This document shows, piece after piece, positions 5,287 to 61,270 of a stretch of DNA of 64,000 bases. The position numbers were made by a program, and so were the translations under genes. Source of the stretch: Flavobacterium sp. CYK-55 (GTDB taxonomy: Bacteria; Bacteroidota; Bacteroidia; Flavobacteriales; Flavobacteriaceae); assembly GCF_018413465.1 (NCBI RefSeq), contig NZ_JAHCDK010000001.1, positions 124,001 through 188,000 on the forward strand, given 5' to 3'. The notes under the pieces are model-generated. The model ran no database searches, was not told the origin of the DNA, and saw nothing but the letters and a program-made list of their open reading frames with translations. Within the stretch, counting starts at the first letter, position 1. Each line of letters begins with the position of its first letter.

Positions 5287-5691
5287 TCAGACCTCGTAGA
5301 ATATATATTGAGAATAAAGCCGATACAACGGCGGACCGTTGGCATCGCAGTAATGTGCTAAAAAAGGATTGCTCTGACGTATGGCAATTGAGGCAACATA
5401 TACCGTTTGCACAACTAACGGGGCAACAAAATCAATGGCTGATAATGAAAAAGATTTCTGAAGTTGACTGTCAGTTTTTTTCTGCAACAGCACTTTTTTG
5501 TTCTTGCAACATGAAGAACTTTCTTCTTTCATTCCGCAGCAAGATTTATCCTTTTGGGGTTTTGAAAAAGAAGTTGAGAAATCAATCGAGCGAACCTGAC
5601 CCCCGCAATAATGCAAATTCATGGTTAATCCAAATTGGGAAACCAAGAGCATCAGACTGAGCCATAAACTCATTTGTTTTTGAAATCTCAT
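5287..5691 (-). CDS. HYC_CC_PP family small Cys-rich protein
   Basis: This 134-residue protein has an N-terminal hydrophobic signal segment and the three signatures of the HYC_CC_PP family. LHYCGG is near residue 27, paired cysteines (SCCG, SSCCKNK) near residues 51-63, and NGPPLYRLY close to the C-terminus. The spaced Cys and His residues look like a metal-binding surface, although no function is established. It is the first gene of a unit with the TonB-dependent receptor and HMA protein. The -7 box ends four bases before the ATG, so the transcript would be nearly leaderless. Confidence 0.8.
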   Translation of the reverse strand: MRFQKQMSLWLSLMLLVSQFGLTMNLHYCGGQVRSIDFSTSFSKPQKDKSCCGMKEESSSCCKNKKVLLQKKTDSQLQKSFSLSAIDFVAPLVVQTVYVASIAIRQSNPFLAHYCDANGPPLYRLYSQYIFYEV

Positions 5692-5743: not shown

Positions 5744-7099
5744 TCAAAGCTCTACTATTTGCCCCATTCGAGCTACGCCACAATCAAAACCGTATTTTTC
5801 TTGAATTTTTATGCGCAATTCATCAGCAGCTTGATTCTCGCCGTGTACCAAAAATACTTTTTGAGGTTGGGTTTTGAGTTCAGACAACCAATTGAGCAAA
5901 TCCGCTTGGTCTGCGTGGGCCGAAAGCCCTTGAATTTCTTGAATATGAGCGCGCACTTGATAATATTTCCCGCGGATTTTAATTTCCTGTGCTCCTTCGA
6001 GCAACTTCCTACCTCGTGTTCCTTCGGCTTGATAACCAATGATGACTATGGTGGTTTCTGGTCTTTCGAGATATCGCTCCAAATAAGTCAAAACGCGTCC
6101 ACCGGTAAGCATGCCACTAGCCGCTATTACCACTTTGGGTTGATGGTCAAAAACAGCTTGTATGGTTTGTTCATAATCTGATATAAACTGAAACGATTGG
6201 CACATTTCACGACAATCATTTTCTGAAAGTTTATGCCATGAGCGATTGTTCATAAAAACATCCAAAACATTAATGCCCATAGGCGTATCAATAATAAAAG
6301 GAATATCTGGAATCCTATCTGTTTTTCTGAGCTGCCAAAGCAAATACATGACACTCTGAGCGCGTTCAACGGCAAAACTTGGGATGATTACTGTTCCGCC
6401 TCTATCAAAAGTATTGTTGATATAAGCTTCAAGTTCGACAAGAACATCAGAGTCCGGGTGTAAACGGTTGCCATAAGTACTTTCAAGAAAAACATAGTCT
6501 GCTTTTTGAGGTTTGGTTGGAGCAAACATAAGTACATCATTATCACGACCAATATCGCCAGAGAAAACCAATGTTTTGTTTTCAAGCTCTAGAGCAATGC
6601 TGCAAGCGCCCAATATGTGCCCGGCATTGGTAAAAACCGCTGAGATTTCTGCATCTAAAACCAATGGTTCATTAGGTTTGACGATTCTGAATTTTGAAAA
6701 AACAGCTTCAGCTTGGGCTACATTATACAAAGGTTCAGCAACTTCATGCTTTGAATAATGCTCTTTATTGGCTTGATCAGCTTCTTCCTCTTGAATTTTG
6801 GCGCTGTCGAGCAAAATGAGTTTGGCAATGGCCGCAGTTGGCGATGTGCAATATATCTTTCCTGAAAAGCCTTGGTGCACCAATCGCGGAAGCCATCCGC
6901 AATGATCTAAATGTCCGTGGGTGAGTAAAACACAATCAATCGTTGAAGGCAAAACAGGCAATGGTTCCCAATTGAGTTCGCGAAGTGATTTAATACCTTG
7001 ATATTGTCCGCAATCAACTAAGATGCGCAGACCGTTGCTTTCGATAAGGGTTTTAGAACCGGTAACCGCTCCGGCTCCGCCCATGAATTGAATTTTCAT
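5744..7099 (-). CDS. MBL-fold beta-CASP RNase (RNA-specificity metallo-hydrolase)
   Basis: This 451-residue protein has a metallo-beta-lactamase core with the zinc motif HGHLDH (H61, H63, D65, H66) and later ligands such as GDIG and the terminal VHGE. A beta-CASP insertion (about 190-370) and a C-terminal RMMBL segment (LSAHADQADLL) are also visible. The family includes bacterial and archaeal homologues of CPSF73/Ysh1 that act on RNA. The gene begins 3 bp after the stop of the ATP-cone nuclease-like gene, so the two are translated from one message. Which RNA it cuts is unknown. Confidence 0.88.
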   Translation of the reverse strand: MKIQFMGGAGAVTGSKTLIESNGLRILVDCGQYQGIKSLRELNWEPLPVLPSTIDCVLLTHGHLDHCGWLPRLVHQGFSGKIYCTSPTAAIAKLILLDSAKIQEEEADQANKEHYSKHEVAEPLYNVAQAEAVFSKFRIVKPNEPLVLDAEISAVFTNAGHILGACSIALELENKTLVFSGDIGRDNDVLMFAPTKPQKADYVFLESTYGNRLHPDSDVLVELEAYINNTFDRGGTVIIPSFAVERAQSVMYLLWQLRKTDRIPDIPFIIDTPMGINVLDVFMNNRSWHKLSENDCREMCQSFQFISDYEQTIQAVFDHQPKVVIAASGMLTGGRVLTYLERYLERPETTIVIIGYQAEGTRGRKLLEGAQEIKIRGKYYQVRAHIQEIQGLSAHADQADLLNWLSELKTQPQKVFLVHGENQAADELRIKIQEKYGFDCGVARMGQIVEL

Positions 7100-7102
7100 A
7101 AT

Positions 7103-7936
7103 TTACAGTTGTTGTTGACAAAGCTCACGGGCTTCTTTGAGAATATTTTTAATTCGATTGGCACTCAAATGAATATCATCAAGTGCCGATGTTTGATGTA
7201 AAAGCTCTTTGACCAATATGATGTTTTGCTCCATGAGTTGATTTTTTTCATTCAAAGTCAAAGTCGTTAAACAAGTTATCGGATACAGATTATCGGCATC
7301 AATTTTATCGCGCAAATTGCTTTTTTCAGGATAATCCCAACTGAGTAAATGAAGACCTGAGCAGCGTCCGAATCTGAGCGCGTCAGAACTAAATCGATTA
7401 TTGGTTACAATCCAACAATGATGAATTTGACACAAAGCATCAAATAATAAATGTTCTTGATTTTTTAAATCATTAAACCGAGAAAGTATATACATAGGCA
7501 CTTTGACATCGGTAACAGATTCGCGTTGGGCATGAAATTTACATTCAATCATGGCGCATTGATCTTGTTTTTTGACCACCACATCAATTTCATGCGAAAC
7601 ACATTTCCCTGCCAATATTAAATTAGTTTGGGTTTGAAAACCTTCGGCTGAAAAAAGTCTGGCTATATATTTTTCAAAAAAGAAACCTGCCGGGCCTAAT
7701 TGCTCAATTGCTTGTCTGAGATTGTAACGAGCTGCGTGTGAATGTGATTTTTTTTTGAGTAAAGCAATCGCCGTTTTATAGATTTGTCGCGTAGATATTC
7801 CTTCAAATATTTGATTTTGAATTTGCTGAAGAATTCTGCTCACCGTGGTTTGATCTGCCCCAGATTTCACAAGAGAGTTTTGAAGTTTTCTGGCATCAAA
7901 CTCAACCAATTCTCCAGAGTTTTTTTGAATTTTCAT
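7103..7936 (-). CDS. ATP-cone plus PD-(D/E)XK nuclease-like fusion protein
   Basis: Residues 1 to about 85 look like an ATP-cone, the nucleotide-sensing domain of ribonucleotide reductases and NrdR (VEFDARKL near the start, then the helical tail). Residues 86-200 resemble the Mrr-like restriction-endonuclease fold, with candidate PD-(D/E)XK residues E116/D118 in HEIDVVV and E131/K133 in IECKFH. The C-terminal 70 residues are helical and unassigned. It lies immediately upstream of the beta-CASP RNase gene, 3 bp apart. A nucleotide-regulated nuclease acting with an RNase is plausible but inferred. No methylase or other restriction gene is nearby. Confidence 0.75.
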   Translation of the reverse strand: MKIQKNSGELVEFDARKLQNSLVKSGADQTTVSRILQQIQNQIFEGISTRQIYKTAIALLKKKSHSHAARYNLRQAIEQLGPAGFFFEKYIARLFSAEGFQTQTNLILAGKCVSHEIDVVVKKQDQCAMIECKFHAQRESVTDVKVPMYILSRFNDLKNQEHLLFDALCQIHHCWIVTNNRFSSDALRFGRCSGLHLLSWDYPEKSNLRDKIDADNLYPITCLTTLTLNEKNQLMEQNIILVKELLHQTSALDDIHLSANRIKNILKEARELCQQQL

Positions 7937-8077: not shown

Positions 8078-8689
8078 ATGGAAATTTTTGCCAGCAGTCA
8101 GAACTTTGAAAAATTTGGAATTGACCAACAAGAATGGGAAATTGAAAACGAGAACTACATTATTAACATTGATCCTCCCTCACCCAAGATTGGCTATACC
8201 CTATATACAATTATGTTGGTTGATTCAGATTTTGACAATCCTCCATCATGGCTTAAAACCAATTCTGATTTTATTGACTACACACTATCTTCTGAAAATA
8301 TTGAAAATCAACATCTTATTAGAGATCATCAAATAAACGCTGCCATTGACAATTTAATCAGCGAAGGAGCATCAATCAACATAACGGGAGCCAACTTAAT
8401 CAGCCAAAACTGTAGCTTTGACAACAAAAGCTATCAAGAGTATATGTCGTTTGCAATTGATGGAAACAGTTTAAGCATAGACATAGTCAGTAATTTTGAA
8501 CGTGGAATAAATTGTTTTTCATACCCTCTTTTTTGGGCCATCAAAAACAACAACAATGAAAAGAATATTCAAAATTGTATTTTTAATTTTGTTCAAATTG
8601 CCATTGATGGTAATGTAACTGTAGCTTTTAAGCTAAATTTTCAGGGTGGAAATGCAAAGTATTATGATTTTACAAACCATCCTATGTAA
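8078..8689 (+). CDS. hypothetical protein, first gene of a two-component unit
   Basis: I do not recognise this 203-residue protein. It has no signal peptide or membrane segment and is acidic and Asn/Ile-rich, with alternating hydrophobic residues suggesting a mostly beta fold. The stretches FAIDGNSLSIDIV and VQIAIDGNVTVAF look like strands of a sandwich. It lies 23 bp before a membrane protein and a histidine kinase/response regulator pair on the same strand, so it is probably co-expressed with them. It could be a target or accessory of that system. Base composition here is more AT-rich than in the neighbouring housekeeping genes. Confidence 0.6.
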   Translation: MEIFASSQNFEKFGIDQQEWEIENENYIINIDPPSPKIGYTLYTIMLVDSDFDNPPSWLKTNSDFIDYTLSSENIENQHLIRDHQINAAIDNLISEGASINITGANLISQNCSFDNKSYQEYMSFAIDGNSLSIDIVSNFERGINCFSYPLFWAIKNNNNEKNIQNCIFNFVQIAIDGNVTVAFKLNFQGGNAKYYDFTNHPM

Positions 8690-8712
8690 TTTAAAAATCC
8701 AATCCATTAAAA

Positions 8713-9378
8713 GTGTACCATTTAAACATTACAGATTTTTTTAACCGAATAAACCCGGTTCAAATATTCATTTTAGCAACTTTTTTAAATGGGGTTTTTA
8801 ATCTAAAATGGCAAAATAAACAACATTTCTTTTTATTGTTAGTTTTATTTGAAGGCCTGATTACTGAGGTTTTTTCAGTAACTCTTAGGTGTTTGAAAAT
8901 GCATTTACTTTTATTGTATTCTATTAGTTTTATATTCTATCATTTAATCTGGTTATTGATTATCACAAATACAAACGAATTGAAAAGTTGGCGAAAAATT
9001 ATTCTTTCCAGTTTTATCACTTTTGGAATTGTCAATCTTTTTTTTATCGAAAAAACCGGACTAAATAATTTAACATTTATCGTGGGCGCATTAATTTACA
9101 TTAGCCTCTTTTTGTACTTCAGTTATCATCAACTCAACCAAGAAAACTTATCTTATTTTACTAAAAACGAATACCTTCTGCTCTTTATTCCCATTATTTT
9201 CTTTTTTGGTTATAGTTTTATGTTTGGTTTTAGAAACTCTGATATCATACATGTTATCATTTACAAGAATATTGACTTGTATATTTTTGTGGGATATTTC
9301 GGCAACATCGTTTATTATTCACTCGCCAATTTATACATTTACAAAGAGAGAAAATCATCTGTAAACCATGAACACTAA
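8713..9378 (+). CDS. multi-pass membrane protein, likely split sensor module
   Basis: This 221-residue protein has about seven hydrophobic segments and short loops, and ends in a basic cytosolic tail (YIYKERKSS). No in-frame ATG lies in the first part, so GTG is taken as start. It overlaps the downstream histidine kinase start by 11 bp, indicating translational coupling. The layout resembles the 7TM sensor modules often fused to histidine kinases, here encoded as a separate protein. Function as the signal-receiving partner of the kinase is inference. I recognise no family. Confidence 0.6.
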   Translation: MYHLNITDFFNRINPVQIFILATFLNGVFNLKWQNKQHFFLLLVLFEGLITEVFSVTLRCLKMHLLLLYSISFIFYHLIWLLIITNTNELKSWRKIILSSFITFGIVNLFFIEKTGLNNLTFIVGALIYISLFLYFSYHQLNQENLSYFTKNEYLLLFIPIIFFFGYSFMFGFRNSDIIHVIIYKNIDLYIFVGYFGNIVYYSLANLYIYKERKSSVNHEH

Positions 9379-10132
9379 CATAGCATTTGGAGTCATTATT
9401 AGTTTTTTGTTTATCTGTTTGATTGTTCTTTTTTGCATTGTAATCATCAAGCTTTACATCCAAAAAATAAAAAAATACAATGCTGTACTGTATGAAAATG
9501 AAATTACTTTTCAGAAAACACTCAACAGTGCGCTCCTAGAAAGTCAGGAACATTTGCTCAATAACATTTCGCAAGACATACACGACGATGCCGGTCAGCA
9601 GCTAACGGTGATTAATTTTCAACTTGAACATTTTAAACTTGATTGGCCCGATGCTTCAGCAGATTTGAAACCTGTATCAGAATCACTGACAAACTTGGCT
9701 GATACTTTGCGCAAAGTAAGTCATTCCTTAAACAATCAATGGCTGAGTCAAAATGGTTTAATAAAAGCCATTACTCAAGAGGTTGAACGCATTAAAAAAA
9801 ACAAATTCATCGAGATAAATTACGTTGAGCCAACATCTGTAAAATCTTTTAAGCCAGAAGAGCAAATTGTACTTTTTAGGATTTTTCAAGAATGTCTAAA
9901 CAATACTTTTAAGCATGCAAGAGCCAATCAAATAAGTATTGTAATAAGTCAAAACCCATTTAGTATTTCTATTCAAGATAACGGTGTTGGTTTTGACATT
10001 TCACAATTAAACGCTTCACAAGGAATCGGAATTGCCAATTGTCAGCAAAGAGCTAAAGTGATTAATTATCACTTTGACATTCAAAGTCAACCCAATCACG
10101 GAACCCAAATCATCCTTTATGAATTAACATAA
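9368..10132 (+). CDS. sensor histidine kinase (HisKA_3/NarX-type)
   Basis: This 254-residue kinase has one N-terminal membrane helix (about residues 8-30) and a short coiled linker. The HisKA_3 dimerisation segment carries phospho-acceptor H72 in IHDDAGQQL. An HATPase domain follows, with N-box around ECLNNTFKHA, G1 DNGVGFD and a GIGIAN lid. No periplasmic sensor domain is present, so sensing probably depends on the overlapping upstream membrane protein. The cognate regulator gene starts 33 bp downstream. Confidence 0.9.
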   Translation: MNTNIAFGVIISFLFICLIVLFCIVIIKLYIQKIKKYNAVLYENEITFQKTLNSALLESQEHLLNNISQDIHDDAGQQLTVINFQLEHFKLDWPDASADLKPVSESLTNLADTLRKVSHSLNNQWLSQNGLIKAITQEVERIKKNKFIEINYVEPTSVKSFKPEEQIVLFRIFQECLNNTFKHARANQISIVISQNPFSISIQDNGVGFDISQLNASQGIGIANCQQRAKVINYHFDIQSQPNHGTQIILYELT

Positions 10133-10165
10133 CAAAAAACAACCACCACTATCGAGCTGCATCAC

Positions 10166-10825
10166 ATGGAAAACTTAATTAGAATTGGTTTGATTGACGA
10201 CCACAAAATAGTTCGTCAAGGCATTAAAGAGCTATTACATAAACTAGGAAACATTCAAGTAACCCATGAATTTGATAGCGGCGTTGAATTTTTATCGGCC
10301 ATACCGCTCAATGATGCACCTGATATGTATATTTTAGATTATTCGATGCCGCAAATGAATGGCATTCAGGTTCTAGAGGTTTTAGAAAAAAAAATTGATG
10401 AATATCGGGTTTTATTACTCACCCAACATTTTGATGAAGAAATCATTAGTCAGGCATACAACGCCGGAGCAAGAGGTTTTTTGAATAAAAACTGTACGGC
10501 TCAAGATTTAAATTTCGCCATAAAAAACATTATGACTGTTGGCTACAACAATGTCTCAGATATTCTCAAACGCGTTAAAAACTTTGATGAGCCCAACAAC
10601 TTAATACACCTCAATGTTGAGTTATCAGAACGTGAACTTGAATTTTTAACCTTGGTATGCAACGACGAAGAATTTACCTATGAACAAATGGCTCATAAAA
10701 TGGGGCTTTCGGTAAAATCGGTTGAAGGTTACAGGGCCGGGCTTTTTGATCGATACGGAATTAAATCAAAAGTAGGGTTGGTTTTGTTTTCATACAAATA
10801 CAAACTCACCGAACCATTTTTATGA
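10166..10825 (+). CDS. LuxR/NarL-type response regulator
   Basis: This 219-residue protein has a receiver domain (residues 5-120) with acidic pair D11-D12, phospho-acceptor D58 in YILDYSMP, and the conserved Thr and Lys further on. A LuxR-type helix-turn-helix follows at about residues 150-210, where YEQMAHKMGLSVKSVEGYR is the recognition region. It pairs with the preceding histidine kinase. Its stop codon overlaps the stop of the convergent exosortase-associated gene by 6 bp. The target may be its own unit, since a palindrome sits upstream of the first gene. Confidence 0.92.
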   Translation: MENLIRIGLIDDHKIVRQGIKELLHKLGNIQVTHEFDSGVEFLSAIPLNDAPDMYILDYSMPQMNGIQVLEVLEKKIDEYRVLLLTQHFDEEIISQAYNAGARGFLNKNCTAQDLNFAIKNIMTVGYNNVSDILKRVKNFDEPNNLIHLNVELSERELEFLTLVCNDEEFTYEQMAHKMGLSVKSVEGYRAGLFDRYGIKSKVGLVLFSYKYKLTEPFL

Positions 10826-11269
10826 AACTTCTTTGATTTTTTGAAAATATAGAGCTGGAAAAAACAGCAACAAAAAAAGTGGTTGAATAAGCAGTCTTCT
10901 GATATAAAAAAGTACAAAATTACTTTGATGATCTGAAAAATACAACAACCCAAATTGAGACAAAAGCAGCACCAAGCCTATAACTCCGTATAATATAAAA
11001 ATGAGTTTGAGCATTGAAGCATCGGAAAAAAACAAATAGATGATGGCAATTGAAATAACCGAATTGAGCAAATAGCGCAACAACATTGAACCCAACAAAG
11101 CAAAACCATCATATTGCGGGAAAGGCAAATTCAAATAATCATTCTTAAAATAATCCAAAAAAGGATCATAGAAAATTTTATGCTCAAATGCTCTAACGGC
11201 TATGAGCAACAAGACCAAAACAGCTATCAAGCTATATCGCGTGGTTTTATTCAGATTTTTTTGTAGCAT
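10820..11269 (-). CDS. exosortase F system-associated membrane protein
   Basis: This 149-residue protein has four or five hydrophobic segments and fits the small membrane protein that accompanies exosortase XrtF in Flavobacteria. The FEHKIFYDPFLDYFKNDYLN segment after the first helix is characteristic. Its start overlaps the end of xrtF by 23 bp, so the two are translationally coupled. A supporting role in the sorting and cleavage of C-terminally tagged exported proteins is known only from association. Confidence 0.85.
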   Translation of the reverse strand: MLQKNLNKTTRYSLIAVLVLLLIAVRAFEHKIFYDPFLDYFKNDYLNLPFPQYDGFALLGSMLLRYLLNSVISIAIIYLFFSDASMLKLIFILYGVIGLVLLLSQFGLLYFSDHQSNFVLFYIRRLLIQPLFLLLFFPALYFQKIKEVS

Positions 11270-11840
11270 ATTTTGAATATGAGCTCACCCATGTTACCCA
11301 AAGGCCAAAAACAACTCCGTAAATAAACAACGGAAACACCACCCCGTGCAACAAAGGTTCTTCATCCGGAAAATGTAATAAAGCCGCCGATAACAAAGCA
11401 ATACGCGTTACGTTGAGCAAGTGAATAACCAAACAACCCGAGAGGATAAAAATCAACGTACGCCAAAAAGTCCCCGAAAAAGCAATAACAAAAGCTGTAA
11501 ACAAAATCATAACGCTCATCGCATTACAACCTTCAACAATGCGCGATACATAATGCCCTTCTAAAATAACTTTTATTGACGCTTGGGTCAAATGTGGTTC
11601 TAAAACAACGTTATAACCTATCCAACCCAACAGCATTTTAACTTGATAAGCCACAGATTGTGTCATTGTATCAACTTCAAAAGTGAGTTGGTCATCAAAA
11701 GCCATCAAATACAATCGATACAAAATTGTCAAGCCAGCATAGGTAGCAAAAAACCGAAACAAAAAAGTAAAAAACGGACGATATGAGCTAAGCGCTTTTT
11801 TCAAGAAGTAATTTTTAACAAAAATATAGAAATTCCACAT
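11247..11840 (-). CDS. xrtF: exosortase XrtF
   Basis: This integral-membrane cysteine protease/transpeptidase acts on exported proteins with a C-terminal sorting signal. The triad is visible at C105 in EGCNAMS, R146 in NVTRIALLS and H165 in LLHGVVFP, set among several transmembrane helices. The start is uncertain. The ATG used here gives 197 residues, while an upstream ATG (11864) would lie within the divergent GAF gene's promoter, and a TTG further inside is also possible. The partner membrane gene overlaps downstream. No obvious substrate with the matching C-terminal signal is in the window. Confidence 0.87.
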   Translation of the reverse strand: MWNFYIFVKNYFLKKALSSYRPFFTFLFRFFATYAGLTILYRLYLMAFDDQLTFEVDTMTQSVAYQVKMLLGWIGYNVVLEPHLTQASIKVILEGHYVSRIVEGCNAMSVMILFTAFVIAFSGTFWRTLIFILSGCLVIHLLNVTRIALLSAALLHFPDEEPLLHGVVFPLFIYGVVFGLWVTWVSSYSKYATKKSE

Positions 11841-11851
11841 GCAGCAATGAA

Positions 11852-11859
11852 TACTTTTG
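11852..11859 (+). promoter_or_regulatory. -7 box of the GAF gene
   Basis: TACTTTTG matches TAnnTTTG exactly, 14 bp before the ATG. The predicted leader is about 10 nucleotides. Confidence 0.65.
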
Positions 11860-11872
11860 CACAAAAAATCCC

Positions 11873-12335: not shown

Positions 12336-12415
12336 AGAAGCTATTCCGGCCATTCGCTAAATCTTTTGCGCTGAACCCCAGCCCAAAAGGATATCGCTGC
12401 TGTCCGGGCTAGGGC
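12336..12415. repeat. dispersed imperfect palindrome, copy A
   Basis: The left arm (GAAGCTATTCCGGCCATTC...) and the inverted right arm (GCCCTAGCCCGGACAGCAG...) can be aligned over about 30 bp around a short loop. The same arms recur near 42.1, 45.8 and 61.2 kb. It lies between the GAF gene and the rpsO promoter and codes for nothing visible. Confidence 0.65.
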
Positions 12416-12495: not shown

Positions 12496-12524
12496 TTTGT
12501 AATCAATATTTATTGTTACATTTG
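12496..12524 (+). promoter_or_regulatory. rpsO promoter (TTTG-N17-TACATTTG)
   Basis: TTTG at 12496-12499 and TACATTTG at 12517-12524 are separated by 17 bp, an exact Bacteroidota -33/-7 pair. The start codon is 57 bp downstream of the -7 box, leaving a leader of about 50 nucleotides that could carry S15 autoregulation. Confidence 0.8.
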
Positions 12525-12580
12525 CACACGAATTGAGAAAATCTCGATTCATACATAATAATCATTTAAACAATATTAGC

Positions 12581-12850
12581 ATGTACTTAACTAAAGAAGT
12601 AAAAGCTGAAATCTTCGCAAAACACGGAGGAAAAGCTGAAAACACCGGTTCTGCCGAAGGGCAAATCGCCTTATTCACCTTCAGAATTAACCACTTGACT
12701 GGGCACTTGAAAAAAAATCGTCACGATTACAACACCGAGCGCTCATTGGTTAAGTTAGTAGGTAAAAGACGTTCATTGCTCGATTATCTCAAGAAAACAG
12801 ATATCACCAGATACCGTGAGATTATCAAAGAATTGAATATCAGAAAATAA
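12581..12850 (+). CDS. rpsO: 30S ribosomal protein S15
   Basis: This 89-residue protein starting MYLTKEVKAEIF is a full-length S15, which binds 16S rRNA in the platform of the small subunit. The conserved GSAEGQIALFTFRI and HRNDYNTERSL-like region (KKNRHDYNTERSL) and the C-terminal YREIIKELNIRK are visible. An open frame extends 16 codons upstream without any conserved residues, so the internal ATG is preferred. A strong terminator follows and pnp lies downstream, the order seen in many bacteria. Confidence 0.97.
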   Translation: MYLTKEVKAEIFAKHGGKAENTGSAEGQIALFTFRINHLTGHLKKNRHDYNTERSLVKLVGKRRSLLDYLKKTDITRYREIIKELNIRK

Positions 12851-19002: not shown

Positions 19003-19125
19003 CGTTGCCTTTGGCCGGGCTATCCGCTTCAATCTCTGCGAGGATTTTCGCTTCTATCCCTAACGCAAAATTAGTCGCTCAGAAAATTTATACTCTCATT
19101 CGAATTCAAAAAACTACAAAAAACC

Positions 19126-42090: not shown

Positions 42091-42103
42091 AAACGAGGAC
42101 AAA

Positions 42104-42181
42104 TTAGCCCTGATGGTCGCGGCATCCTTTTGCCTGTTTCTCAAACAGGGAAAAGATACAGCAGACAGCAGGAATAGCTTC
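42104..42181. repeat. dispersed imperfect palindrome, copy C
   Basis: TTAGCCCTGATGGTCGCGGC at the left end and the inverted GAAGCTATTCCTGCTGTCTG at the right end can be aligned. AGGATG and AAAGAT flank the loop. It fills the space between gldB and the nadE promoter. Confidence 0.7.
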
Positions 42182-45759: not shown

Positions 45760-45788
45760 CAAAGTTTCAGGAATGTTTCGGCATACTT

Positions 45789-45886
45789 TAGCCCTGACAG
45801 CAGCGGCATCCTTTTTTAAGGCTGAACCGCCGCGCAGCATAGGAGCAGCTTTGAAAAAGATACAGCGAATGGCAGGAAATAGCTTC
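45789..45886. repeat. dispersed imperfect palindrome, copy D
   Basis: TAGCCCTGACAGCAGCGGCA at the left and the inverted GAAGCTATTTCCTGCCATTC at the right align as in copies A and C. The loop is longer (about 40 bp). It sits immediately upstream of the dnaG promoter. Confidence 0.7.
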
Positions 45887-61189: not shown

Positions 61190-61270
61190 GCCCTAGCCCC
61201 GGTTGCAGTGGCATCCTTTGGACTGGTTCTTTCCAGGCCAAAGATAGAACGAAAAACGGGATAAAGCTTC
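61190..61270. repeat. dispersed imperfect palindrome, copy E
   Basis: GCCCTAGCCCCGGTTGCAGT at the left and the inverted GAAGCTTTATCCCGTTTTTC at the right align, with GGCATCCTTTG near the loop as in copies A, C and D. It lies upstream of the DUF3108 gene promoter. Confidence 0.68.

What the first reader, a model, noticed from the sequence alone, without database searches (positions are those of the whole stretch)
5744..7936. Nucleotide-sensing nuclease paired with a beta-CASP RNase
An ATP-cone fused to a PD-(D/E)XK-like domain (E116/D118, E131, K133) is encoded 3 bp upstream of a complete CPSF73-like metallo-RNase, with nothing else in the unit. Seen: motifs and spacing. Known: ATP-cones sense ATP/dATP, and beta-CASP proteins cut RNA. 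Inference: a nucleic-acid processing or defence module controlled by nucleotide pools.
Basis: partly seen in the sequence, partly recalled or inferred. Interest (0 to 1): 0.6.

Follow-up and report, generated by a model that had tools for sequence, protein, structure and literature searches.

The report
ATP-cone nuclease paired with RNA-cutting enzyme
Two neighbouring genes, one for a predicted nucleic-acid-cutting enzyme with a built-in nucleotide-sensing domain and one for an RNA-degrading enzyme, are inherited together in many bacteria, often beside stress-survival or nucleotide-recycling genes, which suggests that they recycle nucleic acids when energy runs low rather than fight viruses.

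Summary
Window 7103-7936 (-) encodes a three-domain protein: ATP-cone, Mrr/PD-(D/E)XK nuclease core (E88, E116, D118, E131, K133 invariant in 95 of 95 relatives) and AF1548-like tail; its model (pLDDT 94) matches AF1548 at Z 23. Three bases downstream lies a complete beta-CASP RNase of the TTHA0252/CPSF73 type. In a Bacteroidota survey 43 of 76 nuclease genes have the RNase directly downstream on the same strand, and 43 of 44 RNases above 600 bits are so placed. In the window's family 29 genomes have both genes, 12 neither, none only one. No virus or phage relative was found and no defence family recurs among the neighbours tested. Outside Flavobacterium the pair often sits among universal stress proteins and Hsp20. 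In two plasmids and three other loci an AMP-phosphorylase-like enzyme and PRPP synthetase follow it; a Bradyrhizobium trio of that kind, without the nuclease, is reported as induced at low oxygen. Best reading: an ATP/dATP-tuned nucleic-acid turnover module for energy stress. Sensing and substrates are untested; defence is not supported. The window's own genome lacks the phosphorylase.

The parts
7103..7936 (-). AF1548-like ATP-cone/PD-(D/E)XK protein (277 aa), first gene of the pair
7727..7936 (-). ATP-cone, residues 1-70
   Evidence: Pfam PF03477 28.9 bits, cut-off 25.8; fold match to NrdR Z 9.3 and RNR R1 Z 8.6
7343..7687 (-). Mrr-type PD-(D/E)XK nuclease core, residues 84-198
   Evidence: Pfam PF04471 over cut-off; fold match 1y88 Z 23.1, AspBHI 11.9, Cdn1 10.3
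7538..7546 (-). E131-C132-K133 of the nuclease motif (D118 is encoded at 7583-7585, E88 at 7673-7675)
   Evidence: invariant in 95 of 95 relatives
7121..7285 (-). AF1548-like C-terminal domain, residues 218-272, perhaps helix-hairpin-helix-like
   Evidence: Pfam PF22357 25.5 bits, cut-off 23.9; residues 216-277 match RAD51 chain 8gyk, Z 8.4, rmsd 2.5, 62 aligned (weak for a helical domain)
5744..7099 (-). MBL-fold beta-CASP ribonuclease (451 aa), second gene of the pair; 3 nt lie between the two genes
   Evidence: Lactamase_B, Beta-Casp and RMMBL over cut-off; TTHA0252 E=5e-67
6902..6919 (-). H61-x-H63-x-D65-H66 metal motif of the beta-CASP enzyme
   Evidence: invariant in 9 of 9
5287..5691 (-). 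same-strand Cys-rich small protein 52 nt downstream; possibly co-transcribed
   Evidence: cluster c5, 47 loci, 46 of them at the second place after the nuclease
10820..11864 (-). XrtF exosortase and XrtF-associated protein; directly upstream of the pair in many Flavobacterium loci, here separated by a + strand cassette at 8078-10825
   Evidence: TIGR04128 and TIGR04127 on relatives' copies

Best explanation
The two genes form one conserved functional unit for turning over cellular nucleic acid under stress or low energy. The first protein is a PD-(D/E)XK nuclease with a small helical, perhaps helix-hairpin-helix-like, nucleic-acid-binding tail, whose N-terminal ATP-cone binds ATP/dATP and sets its activity or assembly. 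The second is an RNase of the TTHA0252 type that degrades the RNA. Where neighbours extend the unit, released nucleotides are phosphorolysed (AMP-phosphorylase-like enzyme) and the ribose goes through PRPP synthetase, and in one plasmid on to phosphoketolase and acetate kinase. Shown here: domains, catalytic residues, fold, conserved pairing, co-presence and co-absence, gene neighbours. Inferred: nuclease activity, nucleotide gating, substrates, cooperation of the two proteins, and the stress role.
For: Pairing: 23 of 23 Flavobacterium-type loci, window included; 71 of 80 loci of a genome scan have the RNase downstream on the same strand, 70 of them within 250 nt (these are the 80 nearest of 579, so they lean to close relatives); Bacteroidota survey 43 of 76 nuclease places, and 43 of 44 RNases over 600 bits adjacent. 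In family f1, 29 genomes have both, 12 neither and 0 only one, including three where the genes are unlinked (Fisher 1.3e-10, relatedness not corrected). The paired RNases chosen for the tree form one clade (46 of 47 rows, support 100/99). Stress context: Usp, Hsp20, PF02482 (ribosome-hibernation factor, recalled) and 2-hydroxyacid dehydrogenase neighbours; 2-6 Usp genes within 10 kb against 0.02-0.07 expected at six paired places in five genomes picked after such genes had been seen. Salvage neighbours: nuclease, RNase, phosphorylase and PRPP synthetase in this order in Pontibacter and Criblamydia plasmids and in L125, L173, L224 (one further ORF lies between genes in L173 and L224). B. diazoefficiens bll3115-3117 (MBL, PRPP synthetase, phosphorylase) are up at 0.5% O2: transcripts 15.4-, 7.7- and 5.1-fold, proteins log2 2.9, 4.4 and 2.1 (PMC6515984, passages). 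TTHA0252 is reported to have 5'-3' exo-RNase activity (PMC4229858, passages).
Against: The window's genome has no phosphorylase homologue (same search positive in G255 and G309), so the salvage branch is missing here, and its pair sits beside exosortase and metal genes, with no Usp listed within 10 kb. 33 of 76 nuclease genes lack the RNase next door (two of these lie at a contig end and cannot be judged), and on the nuclease tree the label changes 12 times, at least 10 forced by starred branches, so the nuclease also occurs without it. The Bradyrhizobium trio does not include the nuclease, and that genome was not searched. Paired genomes G309, G337 and G411 also have no Usp listed near. No binding, activity or expression data for the nuclease were found.
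Confidence: 0.5

Rival explanations
1. Anti-phage defence: phage take-over shifts ATP/dATP pools, the ATP-cone switches on the nuclease, and nuclease plus RNase degrade phage or host nucleic acids.
For: The nuclease core's nearest solved relatives after AF1548 include CRISPR ancillary nucleases Can2, Cdn1 and Card1 and modification-dependent REases; the RNase's next relative after TTHA0252 is type VII Cas14; one neighbour protein is a HaeIII-type REase and single neighbours match type I and IV REase models.
Against: No viral or phage homologues; PADLOC matches weak (E 9e-5 at best); 17 PADLOC families touched by 91 neighbours, none in more than 3 (no background rate measured); recurrent chromosomal place in many Flavobacterium.
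Confidence: 0.12
2. Regulatory unit: protein 1 is a nucleotide-responsive regulator or adaptor (NrdR-like cone plus nucleic-acid-binding tail) that controls the RNase or local transcription; its nuclease site is secondary.
For: This RNase subfamily goes with protein 1 (43 of 44 adjacent) while protein 1 also occurs with other neighbours.
Against: The catalytic residues are invariant in 95 of 95 relatives, paired or not, which a pure regulator would not need.
Confidence: 0.2
3. DNA-repair or restriction-like enzyme (AF1548/Mrr type) that is merely co-expressed with a general RNase; neighbours without shared function.
For: Mrr_cat domain and fold matches to AspBHI, MspJI and EndoMS.
Against: Concordant presence and absence in the window's family even where the genes are unlinked, and pairing in different genomic contexts.
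Confidence: 0.15

Closest known systems
AF1548 (PDB 1y88), Archaeoglobus fulgidus; Pfam AF1548-like_C
   Same: nuclease core and C-terminal domain over 183 residues, Z 23.1, 33% identity; same predicted D/E/K site (PMC1821046, passages)
   Different: the crystallised chain begins at the nuclease core and has no ATP-cone; its genome neighbourhood was not examined here
TTHA0252, beta-CASP RNase of Thermus thermophilus
   Same: MBL, beta-CASP and RMMBL domains, aligned over residues 2-447; reported exo-RNase (PMC4229858, passages)
   Different: this subfamily is tied to an ATP-cone nuclease; TTHA0252's own neighbourhood was not examined here
CARF-PD-(D/E)XK ancillary nucleases (Can2/Card1/Cdn1)
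   Same: ligand-sensing domain joined to a PD-(D/E)XK nuclease (the CARF part is recalled)
   Different: the sensor is an ATP-cone, not CARF; no search for CRISPR arrays was made
Low-oxygen MBL, PRPP synthetase and thymidine-phosphorylase trio (B. diazoefficiens bll3115-3117; Pseudomonadota plasmids)
   Same: related beta-CASP enzyme (42-46% identity for the eight plasmid copies opened), in six of those eight with the phosphorylase and PRPP synthetase that follow the pair in Criblamydia and Pontibacter (lack them)
   Different: the nuclease was found in only two plasmid records of that collection, Pontibacter and Criblamydia; no phosphorylase in the window genome
Type VII CRISPR Cas14
   Same: MBL/beta-CASP core, 396.5 bits over residues 1-433
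   Different: well below the family cut-off of 800 bits; matched only to position 425 of 612 of the model

Membership tests
AF1548-like PD-(D/E)XK nuclease | Mrr_cat and AF1548-like_C domains over Pfam cut-off | tested here: met
   28.3/21 and 25.5/23.9 bits
AF1548-like PD-(D/E)XK nuclease | catalytic D, E, K at the AF1548 positions | tested here: met
   D118, E131, K133 in 95 of 95; AF1548 D38/E51/K53
AF1548-like PD-(D/E)XK nuclease | same fold as 1y88 | tested here: met
   Z 23.1, 183 residues, rmsd 2.9, on a predicted model
AF1548-like PD-(D/E)XK nuclease | nuclease activity | not testable with these tools
   needs purified protein
ATP-cone proteins | ATP-cone domain by profile and fold | tested here: met
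   28.9/25.8 bits; NrdR Z 9.3, RNR R1 Z 8.6
ATP-cone proteins | lysines at NrdA K9/K21 positions (their role in nucleotide binding is recalled) | tested here: met
   K5 94 of 95, K17 83 of 95; alignment with NrdA and NrdR
ATP-cone proteins | binds ATP/dATP | not testable with these tools
   needs ITC or a structure
TTHA0252/CPSF73-type beta-CASP RNases | Lactamase_B, Beta-Casp and RMMBL domains with conserved metal motifs | tested here: met
TTHA0252/CPSF73-type beta-CASP RNases | RNase activity | not testable with these tools
   reported for TTHA0252 (PMC4229858, passages)
RNase J | TIGR00649 over cut-off | tested here: not met
   16.7 bits, cut-off 400
aCPSF1/FttA | TIGR03675 over cut-off | tested here: not met
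   279.2 bits, cut-off 580.2; matched only from model position 176
Cas14 (type VII CRISPR) | NF045584 over cut-off | tested here: not met
   396.5 bits, cut-off 800
known anti-phage defence systems | strong PADLOC match or recurrent defence neighbours | tested here: inconclusive
   best match E 9e-5; no PADLOC family in more than 3 of 91 neighbours; no background rate was measured

The most novel reading that the evidence does not exclude
The pair is the energy-charge-sensing front end of a 'nucleic acid to ATP' survival pathway: when ATP falls, the ATP-cone releases the nuclease, the beta-CASP RNase finishes RNA to nucleotides, and (where present) the AMP-phosphorylase-like enzyme, PRPP synthetase, phosphoketolase and acetate kinase turn the ribose into acetyl-phosphate and ATP. 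Flavobacterium would keep only the sensing and cutting part.
Probability: 0.22. Interest if true: 0.78.

Novelty: new variant of a known kind. Interest (0 to 1): 0.52.

Why it matters
The first protein matched no NCBIfam model and the plasmid records call its relatives only 'ATP cone domain-containing protein' and the RNase only 'MBL fold metallo-hydrolase'. Ten term searches of the held paper library listed no paper whose title or abstract start describes the pair; only listings and passages of five papers were seen, so this is weak evidence of absence. If the reading holds, an ATP-cone, known mainly from ribonucleotide reductases and NrdR (partly recalled), would control nucleic-acid breakdown instead of nucleotide synthesis. 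It would also give a testable role to a beta-CASP, phosphorylase and PRPP-synthetase gene set whose members are induced by low oxygen in Bradyrhizobium without an explanation in the passages read.

Tried and rejected
Defence reading: no support. Fusion of the ATP-cone to the RNase: the second ATP-cone downstream of the nuclease in four genomes belongs to a putative glucoamylase in the copies read. RNase J, aCPSF1 and Cas14 membership: below cut-off. The viral-contig scans used short peptide patterns and can miss distant relatives. Card1, NucC and FokI appear among the fold matches and were not pursued. The second structure job was not used; the complex was not modelled; one ATP-cone paper (PMC5794259, passages) gave nothing on nucleases.

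Rows dropped and choices made before counts: one search looked at 30 of the 33 match rows. One search used 76 of the 87 match rows (dropped: fragments G279 x2 and G397 x2, four glucoamylase-fused cones, weak partial hits G259:C24, G252 and G359) and 61 RNase rows (those above 440 bits); the 600-bit line was drawn after seeing the list. The RNase profile A2 was built from paired copies, which favours paired ones at the top. Two of the 33 'unpaired' places (G356, G441) have the downstream side at a contig end. Co-occurrence used E<=0.001 for the nuclease and E<=1e-60 for the RNase. The five genomes were picked after Usp genes had been seen near the pair; of the other 12 genomes, G187, G239, G142, G423 and G164 also list Usp within 10 kb of the nuclease (in G423 and G164 it is unpaired), and G000, G203, G165, G309, G337, G352 and G411 list none; that table is cut at the weak end. 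Neighbour scan A5 used 91 of 269 dereplicated neighbour proteins, taken from the first 150 printed. The trees used chosen rows, not every locus fetched.

Full report
What is there. Window 7103-7936 (-) and 5744-7099 (-) are two complete ORFs three bases apart. The first protein has three domains over their Pfam cut-offs: ATP-cone (1-70), Mrr_cat (84-198) and AF1548-like_C (218-272). Its only solved sequence relative at E<=1 is AF1548, 1y88 (E 1e-28). PMC1821046 (passages) predicted AF1548 to be a restriction-type endonuclease with D38/E51/K53; by the alignment these are D118/E131/K133 here. A model from 33 aligned sequences has pLDDT 94.1 and pTM 0.89. VIA-align gives 1y88 Z 23.1, then AspBHI 11.9 and Cdn1 10.3; the first 81 residues match NrdR (Z 9.3, an integrative model; crystal chain 9gex Z 8.5) and RNR R1 (8.6), and residues 216-277 match RAD51 (8gyk, Z 8.4), i.e. 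perhaps a helix-hairpin-helix-like domain (that name is recalled, and the tool warns that Z of this size is weak for helical folds). The second protein is a complete MBL/beta-CASP/RMMBL enzyme, closest to TTHA0252.

Residues. In 95 relatives (46 paired, 49 unpaired with the RNase) E88, H115, E116, D118, E131, C132 and K133 are invariant; in the ATP-cone K5 is kept in 94, G8 in 92, K17 in 83 and T49 in 91 of 95. K5 and K17 align with K9 and K21 of E. coli NrdA, and T49 and Y53 with T55 and H59; that these bind nucleotide in NrdA is recalled. R10 of NrdA is not kept here, nor in E. coli NrdR. Binding capacity is therefore plausible, not shown.

Pairing. Of 30 loci read from the relatives search, all 23 Flavobacterium-type loci (window included) and one locus of another family have the RNase directly downstream; six more distant loci do not within 1.5 kb. 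Of 80 loci from the genome-contig scan, 71 have it downstream on the same strand, 70 within 250 nt. In a draw of 395 Bacteroidota genomes, 76 full nuclease genes occur in 71 genomes; 43 are followed by the RNase at -1 to 58 nt (one at 327), 33 are not. Seen from the RNase, 43 of 44 copies above 600 bits are adjacent to a nuclease, and 0 of 17 between 440 and 600 bits. In the window's family 29 genomes have both genes and 12 neither, none only one; three of the 29 (G164, G352, G423) carry them unlinked. The Fisher value 1.3e-10 ignores relatedness. The 46 paired RNases put in the tree lie in a single clade of 47 rows at support 100/99, the exception being the unlinked G423 copy. On the nuclease tree the paired label changes 12 times, at least 10 forced by starred branches. 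So this RNase subfamily goes with the nuclease, while the nuclease also occurs alone or in other settings.

Context. In many Flavobacterium loci the order is XrtF, XrtF-associated protein, nuclease, RNase, small Cys-rich protein, TonB receptor, HMA protein. In the window a + strand cassette (8078-10825) separates the XrtF genes from the pair. Outside Flavobacterium the neighbours differ: universal stress proteins (50 ORFs in 21 loci), Hsp20 (12 loci), PF02482 (4 loci), 2-hydroxyacid dehydrogenase and others. At six paired places in five genomes 2-6 Usp genes lie within 10 kb against 0.02-0.07 expected; at two unpaired places in the same genomes there are none. These five genomes were chosen after Usp genes had been seen; seven of the 17 searched, the window's own among them, list none near. 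In L125, L173 and L224 and in plasmids of Pontibacter actiniarum and Criblamydia sequanensis (Chlamydiota) the pair is followed by an AMP-phosphorylase-like protein and PRPP synthetase; in Criblamydia phosphoketolase and an alpha-glucan phosphorylase precede it and an acetate/propionate kinase follows. The phosphorylase is over the cut-off of TIGR02645 but under that of the AMP phosphorylase equivalog (471-506 bits against 535); its best solved relatives are 4ga4-4ga6 (recalled as the Thermococcus AMP phosphorylase).

Low oxygen. Six of the eight Pseudomonadota plasmids opened carry RNase, phosphorylase and PRPP synthetase, without an annotated nuclease of this kind in the stretch shown; one has an annotated phosphoketolase and three a protein annotated as xylulose 5-phosphate 3-epimerase, which in the one tested matches phosphoketolase models far below their cut-offs (143 of 962 bits). 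The other two opened lack the trio. In Bradyrhizobium diazoefficiens the trio bll3115-3117 is induced at 0.5% O2 at transcript and protein level (PMC6515984, Table 2 passages). That these Bradyrhizobium proteins belong to the same families rests on their annotation; their sequences were not compared here.

What speaks against the pathway reading in this genome: no phosphorylase homologue in the window's genome, while the same search finds it in G255 and G309; no Usp listed within 10 kb. The window copy can at most be the sensing and cutting part.

Defence. No relatives in viral contigs (two scans) or phage records; weak PADLOC similarity to CARF-PD-(D/E)XK proteins (E 9e-5); 17 PADLOC families touch the 91 neighbours tested, none in more than three. 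One HaeIII-type REase neighbour was seen. This lowers but does not exclude a defence role.

Verdict. A genuine, conserved two-gene unit; mechanism inferred as nucleotide-tuned nucleic-acid turnover in energy or oxygen stress.

Noticed in passing
L165-L168 (G306, G208, G404, G342), about 370 bp after the nuclease gene: An ATP-cone is joined to the N-terminus of a putative glucoamylase (PF10091; ATP-cone 24.8 bits, just under its cut-off of 25.8), perhaps copied from the neighbouring nuclease; a nucleotide-sensing domain on a glycoside hydrolase.
   Followed up: partly
window 8078-10825 (+): Cassette with what look like a histidine kinase (9368-10132) and response regulator (10166-10825) plus two unknown proteins, between the XrtF genes and the pair; absent there in other Flavobacterium loci read. 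The kinase and regulator names are read from the sequence, not from a family search.
   Followed up: no
L127:11373-11816, L130:7516-7938 and relatives: Two small proteins (clusters c13 and c20) recur beside the pair in stress islands and match no Pfam family over its cut-off and no NCBIfam model.
   Followed up: no
L074, L087: Contigs titled Bifidobacterium breve and Candidatus Nitrotoga MAGs carry Flavobacterium-like copies of the pair (nuclease 59-61% identity), probably misbinned.
   Followed up: no
L234:1-18828 (Criblamydia plasmid): A Chlamydiota plasmid carries the pair in a compact run of phosphoketolase, alpha-glucan phosphorylase, phosphorylase, PRPP synthetase and acetate kinase genes; its RNase nests among Bacteroidota copies in the tree, which suggests transfer.
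   Followed up: partly
window 12339-12414 (-), 19009-19071 (-), 42102-42179 (+), 45786-45883 (+), 61191-61267 (+): Five copies of the Flavo-1 RNA (RF01705) in 64 kb, plus an S15-Flavobacteria leader at 12517-12583.
   Followed up: no
L066: In one Flavobacterium MAG about 1.86 kb separates the nuclease and RNase genes; what lies between was not examined.
   Followed up: no
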